A DNA stretch of 64,000 nt, taken from contig CM034392.1 in NCBI GenBank assembly GCA_019925095.2, forward strand, positions 11,737,887 through 11,801,886. Direction: 5' to 3'. The DNA comes from Dendrolimus kikuchii. Lineage: Eukaryota; Arthropoda; Insecta; Lepidoptera; Lasiocampidae. The translations under genes and the position numbers were made by a program. Under the pieces are notes generated by a model. That model did not search any database, had not been told where the DNA came from, and saw only the letters and a list, made by a program, of their open reading frames with translations. This document shows positions 50,401 through 53,400 of this stretch, one piece after another; the first letter of the stretch is position 1; each line of letters opens with the position of its first letter.

Positions 50401-53400
50401 TCACCGCCGGTGGCTTTGGCAAGAAGGGAGCGTGCTGGTCTGCTCCTTCTCCTACTCCGCCGTGTCCTTCGCGGATATGACCGGCCTATACTTACTTTTA
50501 CCCATTACATAATCTTCGCTCTTTATTTTAATGTAATAGTTATTGTTGCGGAGATAACGCAAGGAATGATAAGCTTTTGGATAATGAGTGTATTTAATGG
50601 TAAAATGGTAAAAAATACAATGCAATTATTACATGTGGCAGACGGAGAGAATATTAATTATTGACAACTTAGCTTCAAATCAATTAAAAAACATATAAAA
50701 AAGTTCCAGATAAAAGGAGTACGCAACAGGCAAACATTATTATTTCTTGTTTCCTAATTCAGCAAAAACTTACTGAGATTTAACGGCTATACAAATGAAA
50801 GTAAATAAGTACCTGACGTAAACCCAAAGTTAGTACCCCCAGCAAACATATAGAAGTTAACGTGAACATTTTTCTTCAACATGTACTCTAAGTGATCAGT
50901 AATCATGTCTTGATATGTCCAATACTTCGGCACGCTCCAGTATGTCCACCAGCCAGTGGTAAGCTCCGAATTAATAAACGGACCCAAAGGCATTAACTTT
51001 CTCAAGTCTTCCAATGCTTGAACCATTGCTAAAAAAATAATAATATGGATAATGTTATACAATTTTTTTTAACAAAAACCGATTTCAATCAACAAAAGCA
51101 AAAAATATACGCACGCAGAATGAGCTCACAGTGTCTTGAGGTCTGGCAGTTGGTTTTTGCTGGATTTGGGTCTTAATAGTTTTGATGATCCGATCCCAAA
51201 CAGGTGGTACTTGCCAACCAGGCGTACACCGGAACACAATTATTTTACCTCCCACCCATTTTCATATTATATAAAATGATTAGAGCTAGGCATATTTGCT
51301 GAAGAGTTTCTTACACCGCTTCTTCTCTGGTCGGTGTTAAATTAAATAGGTTCCCATGGAGTAAATAATAACCATAAACAAAATTAAAACTAAGTAACTA
51401 AAATGAACAAGTTAGCGGTATGCTAAATAAAACTTTAACAATACTCATTGACACTTGATATCTTTGTCTTCCATGATCACGGCTACTGAAAATTGGCCGA
51501 AACGGTGGAATAATAAAAATCAAATAAATTACCGCGCTTAAAACTGTTAAAACGTAGTTTTATTATAAAACTACGTTTTTCTACTATTCTTCTTGTATAC
51601 TACTACATACGACGACAAAATGACGTTTTAACCATTTTTTAATTAGTCTTAGTGTCTATTCTTCACTATGGCTGTTAAACAGACTTAAAACAAAAATTAA
51701 AATTGACAACGCCTCGATAACCGTTAAGGAAGTTATAATTATGGATTTATGTCAAAATATCATCTTCGAAATTATATCCTTTGTGTAAAAAATGTAACGA
51801 TACTGTGAGAAAAGTCAGTAAATAACCAAAATACAGCCTTCTTCACACGTCTCGAACAAGTAATACAAAATTCATTTTTATGTTCCTTCCAAATAAAAAG
51901 CAGATGGTACATTTCTATTTTCCAGTCTAGATTTTCCCGCGAGTTCGCCTGCTTTATTTCTTACTACATACAGCTTTTCGTGCAACTACACTTAACACAG
52001 ATTTGAATACTATAAAATTTATCTTATCTATAAGATAAAAGCATTCTAAATTGATCCTTGTTATCAAAAGTTACATAATATTATAAGTATACTTAGATAT
52101 CTACTTACATATATAAACAAATTTCACGTCATATGTAGTTAAAGTACATAATATGTTGTAGGCATATATTGTCAAAATAAGTATGTTAAACCGATTGGGA
52201 AAATAAATGGTTTTTTCTAACACTTAATTTTTTAGAGTTCTGACACTAATATATCAAAAATGCTTTATTAGTATAGGTATACATGGAAGAAGAAAAATAA
52301 CAATAGATGTCTTTTTCGCAATAAGACCATCTGTTGTACGGTCTGTGTTTCTTTTTAAAAACAAAGAAAATAGAAACAATTTCTTTGTCTATAAAACGAT
52401 ATAAACAAAGTCAGCTGAAACATTATTATTTGTAGCATGAGGCATTTTTATGCGTCTTTTCTTTTGCGTACCAACACTAAAGAGTTTTCTATCTAATTGC
52501 AGAATGTATAAACCATCTTTATCAGATTTTGTGCGGATGTTACGCTAAGCGCTGTAATAGTGGAACTATGCAGACATTAAAATCACTTATGATAAAAACT
52601 TACGGTCATGAGTAACAATAGTAGTTATCGTGCTAGGTATAGCGCCAGCGACGAATGAATCATAGGTACCCAAGTCTGTAGTATACAACAGCGCCTTCCT
52701 ATCCACGTGCTTGGATATTATGTCGCGAAGTTTCGTCTTGTACGTCACATCGGATCCTATCACTCCGTATTTATTTTCCACCTAATAAAGATAAATAAAT
52801 AGTATTTTAACGTGTATCTATAAAGAAATTTATGAAAGAAATCGAAGCATAAGTTGTCGCCAAGATCCCAGCATGTGAAGATAATTAGTTTCCAATTATT
52901 GATATAGTAACAGACGTGATAGTATGTACTTAGTTATTTCTACCAATAATGTTTTTGGTTTTTTTAGCAGTTTTGAGTCCTATTCACGTGTGTACAGGAC
53001 ACCATCACCGCCACCGCACCGCCGCCGCGAGAATAAGCTGTGCAGATTAGACATGACTGGGCCGCCGTCAGTTTCGCTGTCAAGCGGGCATCACCGTTGG
53101 GGCAGCGGTATGAGGAATAACGTTCGTATGCACCTAGAAGCCTAGAAATAATAGGTCTTTTTTACCTATGAAAATATTTTTTGTTTGGCTAAGAATTCTA
53201 ATTTCAAATTAATTCTATTTTAAAAACATGGAATTTTTTTATTTATTTAGGTTTATGGCTTGGCAGCTAGGCCTTTAAGCCAGATCTTAGTTTACAATAT
53301 AGTTTCTTCATTTTCTTAAGCCTAAGTATATAGCACAGCTGAACTGTAGGTAATCAGCTAGGGCCATTCATCGGAGTTCTTGTGACAACGCAAAAGGCCA

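What the first reader, a model, noticed from the sequence alone, without database searches (positions are those of the whole stretch)
52770..52772. GH35 protein with its acid/base glutamate replaced by lysine in an otherwise intact 664-residue frame
Seen: the twelve exons join without any stop or shift, the nucleophile motif NSE (E294), the substrate-site E157 and N216 are kept, but the ENE[FY] motif reads VENKYG. Known: the second Glu of ENE is the proton donor in GH35. Inference: hydrolysis should be strongly impaired, so the gene may encode a galactose-binding pseudoenzyme, an enzyme with altered chemistry, or a very recent pseudogene. One G-to-A change explains it.
Basis: partly seen in the sequence, partly recalled or inferred. 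Interest (0 to 1): 0.88.

Follow-up and report, generated by a model that had tools for sequence, protein, structure and literature searches.

The report
Moth β-galactosidase-like protein without catalytic residues
A pine-caterpillar moth gene still encodes a complete β-galactosidase-shaped protein, but about half of the residues that normally hold and cut the sugar have been replaced, so it is most likely a retained, non-cutting relative of the enzyme rather than an enzyme with one recent mutation.

Summary
The codon at 52772-52770 (minus strand) is AAA (Lys) where GH35 enzymes have the acid/base Glu (human GLB1 Glu188), in a twelve-exon gene open from start to stop. The protein is that of Dendrolimus kikuchii, K1T71_003837. 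The reading 'one G-to-A change in an otherwise intact enzyme, perhaps a very recent pseudogene' does not hold. The same protein also lacks Tyr83 (F), Cys127 (G), Tyr270 (T), Tyr331 (F) and Tyr333 (S), and the conserved Asp-Phe-Gly stretch. Of ten active-site residues named in papers five are changed, against 17 of 164 other conserved columns (Fisher p 0.003; set chosen after the alignment was seen). Fold, Pfam domains and reading frame are kept. A paralogue on a contig of the same length, K1T71_003894, keeps the acid/base, the nucleophile and the pocket tyrosines. Best reading: an older duplicate that became a GH35 pseudoenzyme and was kept as a protein; what it now does is inferred only. Orthologues, expression and dN/dS could not be tested: the own-genome search did not complete. 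New variant of a known kind.

The parts
58331..58465 (-). exon 1 (tentative): ATG, hydrophobic signal-like N-terminus
   Evidence: open frame, GT donor, phase 0, hydrophobic stretch; absent from the public model, which starts in exon 2
57380..57540 (-). exon 2
   Evidence: homology and AG/GT sites
56934..57084 (-). exon 3: Y83F, C127G; E129 kept
56405..56468 (-). exon 4
56229..56323 (-). exon 5
52604..52781 (-). exon 6: VENKYG; its end lacks the conserved Asp-Phe-Gly
52770..52772 (-). codon AAA, Lys206 in place of the acid/base Glu (human Glu188)
   Evidence: Glu in 138 of 139 other homologues with a residue there, one further row a gap
57081..57083 (-). codon TTT, Phe in place of Tyr83
   Evidence: Tyr in 139 of 139 others with a residue, one gap
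56949..56951 (-). codon GGT, Gly in place of Cys127
   Evidence: Cys in 136 and Ser in 3 of 139 others with a residue, one gap
50813..51028 (-). exon 7: nucleophile Glu283 (human Glu268) kept at 50966-50964
   Evidence: the public model uses an acceptor 12 bases further in
50958..50960 (-). codon ACC, Thr in place of Tyr270
   Evidence: Tyr in 140 of 140 others
49440..49558 (-). exon 8: Y331F (49517-49515), Y333S (49511-49509)
   Evidence: Tyr331 in 139 of 139; Tyr333 in 135 and Phe in 4 of 139, one gap each
45397..45669 (-). exon 9
43783..43917 (-). exon 10
43110..43319 (-). exon 11
41247..41471 (-). exon 12 with stop codon

Best explanation
A GH35 duplicate of a moth beta-galactosidase that has become a pseudoenzyme. 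Shown: an intact twelve-exon frame with the GH35 sequence profile and predicted fold, and replacement of the acid/base Glu together with residues that contact galactose (Tyr83, Cys127, Tyr333) and one that orients the nucleophile (Tyr270), while most other strongly conserved residues are kept. Inferred: the protein is made and exported or lysosomal, does not hydrolyse beta-galactosides, and works without catalysis, most likely as a binding protein that uses its retained surface and C-terminal beta-domains, either on a new ligand or alongside the paralogue K1T71_003894.
For: Gene model. The annotated D. kikuchii protein has the same residues at all thirteen sites compared. Across 140 homologues (all listed except P0001) the five replaced literature sites are Tyr 139/139, Cys 136/139, Glu 138/139, Tyr 140/140 and Tyr 135/139, gaps set aside. 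The changes gather in the pocket: 5 of 10 against 17 of 164 other conserved columns, p 0.003; at the strictest cut 4 of 8 against 5 of 102, p 0.001. 101 of 107 near-invariant columns are kept. Branch 0.96 against 0.28 for the paralogue. Model pTM 0.90, pLDDT 86.7; best PDB match human GLB1 with galactose, TM 0.89. The block with ENKYG has pLDDT 66 against 87 and 80 for the paralogue's two blocks. Neutral substitution to 20% amino-acid change left 0 of 300 runs free of stops. Residue roles: PMC8100397 (passages), PMC6631223 (passages), PMC6566704 (passages: Glu188 acid/base; E179Q at the equivalent place in GlmA lost activity dramatically).
Against: The equivalents of nucleophile Glu268, Glu129, Asn187, Trp273 and Tyr306 are all kept, which a purely structural protein need not keep. 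No orthologue, transcript or dN/dS was seen, so upkeep by selection rests on the open frame and on conserved columns. At 10% neutral change 10 of 300 runs had no stop, and the copy's excess divergence from the moth and butterfly consensus over the paralogue's is about ten points (240 of 607 against 179 of 616), so a neutral period of that length is not firmly excluded. The residue set was fixed after the alignment had been seen. The non-catalytic role is not shown by anything here.
Confidence: 0.72

Rival explanations
1. Enzyme with altered chemistry: the kept nucleophile with Lys at the acid/base place and a reshaped pocket turns over a different glycoside, for instance one with a leaving group that needs no acid (recalled parallel: plant myrosinase, GH1, with Gln at that place).
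For: Equivalents of Glu268, Glu129, Asn187, Trp273 and Tyr306 kept; frame and fold kept. Loss of Cys127, which bonds the galactose-type axial O4 (PMC6566704), would fit a changed sugar preference.
Against: Tyr270, which holds the nucleophile in place (PMC6566704; PMC8100397), is Thr here and Tyr in 140 of 140 others; several sugar-holding side chains are gone together.
Confidence: 0.1
2. A decaying pseudogene under relaxed constraint that has not yet met a stop or frameshift.
For: Long branch; changes at residues that the other homologues hardly ever change; the public annotation leaves out exon 1; 10 of 300 neutral runs to 10% change had no stop.
Against: 101 of 107 near-invariant columns kept; changes concentrated in the pocket; splice sites intact; at 20% neutral change 0 of 300 runs lacked a stop.
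Confidence: 0.13
3. One recent G-to-A change (or allele) in an otherwise working enzyme.
For: GAA to AAA is one step; a single assembly was seen.
Against: Five further pocket residues are replaced in the same protein.
Confidence: 0.02
4. Sequencing or assembly error at the codon, or A-to-I RNA editing of AAA that gives Glu in the mRNA.
For: Only one assembly was seen; AAA to GAA is a possible editing outcome (recalled).
Against: Reported base accuracy 99.9975% (PMC8589036); neither error nor editing at this codon accounts for the Tyr and Cys replacements, which lie in exons 3, 7 and 8.
Confidence: 0.03

Closest known systems
GH35 beta-galactosidase GLB1 (human, mouse) and insect homologues ('ectoderm-expressed 3', beta-galactosidase)
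   Same: Sequence over residues 56-641, Pfam PF01301, PF21317, PF21467, fold, nucleophile Glu.
   Different: Acid/base Glu is Lys; Tyr83, Cys127, Tyr270, Tyr331, Tyr333 and the Asp-Phe-Gly stretch changed.
K1T71_003894 (P0002), paralogue of the same moth
   Same: 57-60% identity, contig of the same length.
   Different: Keeps the acid/base, the nucleophile, Cys127 and the pocket tyrosines; has Gly at Ala128, whose contact is by main chain. Shorter branch.
Hyposmocoma kahamanoa P0028, 'beta-galactosidase-like'
   Same: The only other acid/base loss among 139 homologues with a residue there (Glu to Gly); long branch.
   Different: The other pocket sites compared are kept, but 12 of 112 near-invariant columns depart, against 5 of 107 in the window copy, gaps not counted. 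Pairs with the window copy only at 35/86 and sits elsewhere, at 67/47, when that copy is left out, so most likely a separate loss.
67-kDa elastin-binding protein, inactive splice form of human GLB1
   Same: A catalytically inactive GH35 product that works as a binder (PMC11378999, passages).
   Different: A splice form of an active gene, not a separate gene with residue changes.
GH28 pseudoenzymes of leaf beetles
   Same: Duplicated insect glycosidases that lost catalysis, with effects on silencing (PMC6549527, abstract).
   Different: Another glycosidase family, pectin-degrading.

Membership tests
GH35 (protein family, by sequence and fold) | Pfam Glyco_hydro_35 above cut-off over the full profile | tested here: met
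   336.6 bits against a cut-off of 27, profile 2-318 of 319 (on P0001)
GH35 (protein family, by sequence and fold) | TIM barrel plus beta-domains as in solved GH35 structures | tested here: met
   predicted model only: TM 0.89 to 3thc, 0.90 to 4mad, pTM 0.90
Active GH35 beta-galactosidase | acid/base Glu in ENE[FY] | tested here: not met
   Lys206
Active GH35 beta-galactosidase | nucleophile Glu in NSE | tested here: met
   Glu283
Active GH35 beta-galactosidase | galactose-contact side chains Tyr83, Cys127, Glu129, Asn187, Tyr333 | tested here: not met
   Phe, Gly, Glu, Asn, Ser: two of five kept
Active GH35 beta-galactosidase | hydrolysis of a beta-galactoside | not testable with these tools
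   needs the purified protein
Pseudoenzyme | catalytic residues lost in a homologue of an enzyme | tested here: met
   one of the two catalytic Glu lost, plus pocket residues
Pseudoenzyme | kept by selection as a protein | tested here: inconclusive
   open frame and conserved columns only; no dN/dS, no orthologue
Pseudogene | disabled frame or splice sites | tested here: not met
   no stop or shift, all eleven introns GT...AG
Pseudogene | not transcribed | not tested
   no expression data at hand

The most novel reading that the evidence does not exclude
The sugar subsite was rebuilt rather than abandoned: with the nucleophile and the Glu129 and Asn187 equivalents kept, Lys at the acid/base place, Gly where the axial-O4 contact Cys127 stood, and small residues for Tyr270 and Tyr333, the protein binds or turns over a different glycoside (for instance an activated plant glycoside met in pine feeding), a new activity inside GH35 without a Glu acid/base.
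Probability: 0.08. Interest if true: 0.75.

Novelty: new variant of a known kind. Interest (0 to 1): 0.42.

Why it matters
It is a naturally occurring GH35 duplicate in which half of the literature-named pocket residues are gone while the scaffold stays, so it could show what a GH35 fold does without catalysis, as the elastin-binding form of GLB1 does. It also warns that automatic annotation as 'beta-galactosidase' would mislead for some insect copies. In people, single changes at Tyr83, Tyr270 or Tyr333 occur in GM1 gangliosidosis or Morquio B (PMC8100397, passages); this moth protein is changed at all three.

Tried and rejected
Single-mutation and sequencing-error readings: rejected because of the other pocket changes. 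A second GH35 gene or a spare exon 6 within the window: none seen (tblastn; the hits outside the exons have E of 0.024 or more). An old pseudoenzyme lineage shared with Hyposmocoma P0028: the two share 17 rare states, the most of any row with the window copy (next 14 for Plodia, 12 for K1T71_003894), and pair at 35/86. With P0028 left out the window copy sits beside K1T71_003894 and P0003 at 81/91, and without the window copy P0028 goes to Yponomeuta at 67/47, so long-branch pull is likelier but not proven. Holding the window copy with K1T71_003894 and P0003 is not rejected, p 0.50. Orthologues by an exon-6 peptide: one candidate, none with E of 1 or less. A profile search with the window copy's protein and P0028 listed 120 of 4536 matches; among the 140 rows together P0028 is the only other one with a residue other than Glu there. 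Papers: searches (15 of 313 listed; 15 of 57) listed no paper whose title or abstract start is about a GH35 pseudoenzyme of moths; the library lacks most subscription journals.

The ten-residue set was taken from papers after the alignment had been seen (one search came). Trp273 (kept) and Tyr331 (lost), which I had listed from memory, are not in it; Tyr331 counts among the 17 of 164. P0001 and the window row were left out of all counts of 'others'. Trees hold a choice of mine: 31 homologues of 119, and a set of 27 homologues (P0017, P0019, P0044 and others not in it) with P0028 or the window copy left out in turn; P0029 is in none. Structure jobs used 36 of 141 proteins.

Full report
What is there. 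The minus strand from 58465 to 41247 holds a twelve-exon gene whose exons join into 653 codons without a stop. All eleven introns are GT...AG. Exon 1 is my own model: it gives a hydrophobic, signal-like start, but the public model begins in exon 2 and takes an acceptor 12 bases further into exon 7.

Whose it is. From residue 54 on the protein is letter for letter K1T71_003837 of Dendrolimus kikuchii (Lasiocampidae), apart from the four residues of the exon 7 acceptor. That record very likely comes from the same assembly and is not independent evidence for the base. The genome paper reports 99.9975% single-base accuracy (PMC8589036, passages). A paralogue, K1T71_003894, lies on a contig of the same length, 28,263,831 bases, so very likely the same chromosome.

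The codon. Residue 206 is Lys, AAA at 52772-52770. Its human counterpart is Glu188, the acid/base (PMC6566704, passage). Of 140 homologues counted (the 141 proteins listed without P0001), 138 have Glu, one Gly (P0028, Hyposmocoma) and one a gap (P0029, partial).

The rest of the pocket. Seven residues are listed with contacts to galactose in the human crystal structure: Tyr83, Ala128 (main chain), Glu129, Asn187, Glu188, Glu268, Tyr333 (PMC6631223, table passage). The window copy has Phe, Ala, Glu, Asn, Lys, Glu, Ser. Cys127, said to bond the axial O4 of galactose (PMC6566704, passage), is Gly here; others have Cys 136, Ser 3, gap 1. Tyr270, which orients the nucleophile, is Thr here and Tyr in 140 of 140 others. 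Tyr331 is Phe here and Tyr in 139 of 139; its role is recalled. The Asp-Phe-Gly at the end of the exon 6 stretch is missing.

Is the loss targeted? With ten literature sites and conserved columns at 90%, 95% and 97%, the window copy departs at 5 of 10, 5 of 10 and 4 of 8 sites, against 17 of 164, 11 of 130 and 5 of 102 other columns; Fisher p 0.003, 0.002 and 0.001. The set was written down after the alignment had been seen, so these values are a guide. In one search, 101 of 107 near-invariant columns were kept. Its five substitutions there, a gap aside, exceed those of 27 of the 28 rows P0002-P0029 (0 to 3 each; P0029 is partial; the named ones are moths and butterflies); P0028 has more, 12 of 112. 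The copy differs from the consensus of rows P0002-P0027 at 240 of 607 columns, the paralogue at 179 of 616 and P0028 at 263 of 599.

Fold. Pfam GH35 is matched over positions 2-318 of 319. The AlphaFold model of P0001 has pLDDT 86.7 and pTM 0.90 and matches human beta-galactosidase with galactose at TM 0.89. Confidence is lower on the catalytic face: the block with ENKYG has 66, against 87 and 80 for the paralogue's two blocks, and residues 191-240 have 64-86 by block, against 79-96. The paralogue has dips of its own, 68 at 351-360 and 63 and 66 at 561-580. Low confidence is only a hint of a changed pocket.

History. In the tree of 32 rows the copy has a branch of 0.96 and the paralogue 0.28; the copy's place there is not settled. 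Without the long P0028 row it joins K1T71_003894 and P0003 at 81/91, which puts the duplication before those two split. So the copy is probably not new. P0028 is most likely a separate loss of the acid/base, though the two share 17 rare states.

Pseudogene test. Random substitution of this coding sequence to 10%, 20% and 30% amino-acid change left 10, 0 and 0 of 300 runs without a stop (substitutions only, no indels). Long neutral decay is unlikely; a short neutral period is not excluded. dN/dS could not be measured because no nucleotide sequence of a relative was obtained.

Verdict. The lysine is real and hydrolysis is very probably lost, but through replacement of half the pocket, not one base. 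The best reading is a GH35 pseudoenzyme kept as a protein. Its present role is inferred: precedents are the elastin-binding form of GLB1 (PMC11378999, passages) and GH28 pseudoenzymes in beetles (PMC6549527, abstract). An altered-chemistry enzyme remains possible because the nucleophile and part of the sugar site are kept.

Noticed in passing
window 46923-47830 (-): Broken transposase remnant in two frames inside the intron between exons 8 and 9 of the GH35 gene: 46923-47480 matches Pfam DDE_3 (30.2 bits, cut-off 28.6), 47510-47830 matches helix-turn-helix families below their cut-offs. Tc1/mariner type is recalled.
   Followed up: partly
window 38945-39628 (+): Reverse transcriptase fragment (Pfam RVT_1, 87 bits) about 1.6 kb beyond the 3' end of the gene; the open frames on either side (38397-39002, 39616-40161) matched no Pfam family.
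   Followed up: partly
P0028, Hyposmocoma kahamanoa: A second moth GH35 copy without the acid/base Glu (ENG), on a contig of the same length as P0011, a copy with the pocket residues intact.
   Followed up: partly
P0055 (Aphis gossypii) and P0112 (Sipha flava): These aphid GH35 copies carry Ser for Cys127, Phe for Tyr306 and Phe for Tyr333 together, perhaps another kind of pocket change.
   Followed up: no
P0029, Operophtera brumata, partial: Reads NSQ in place of the nucleophile motif NSE; the record is partial and may be an assembly fault.
   Followed up: no
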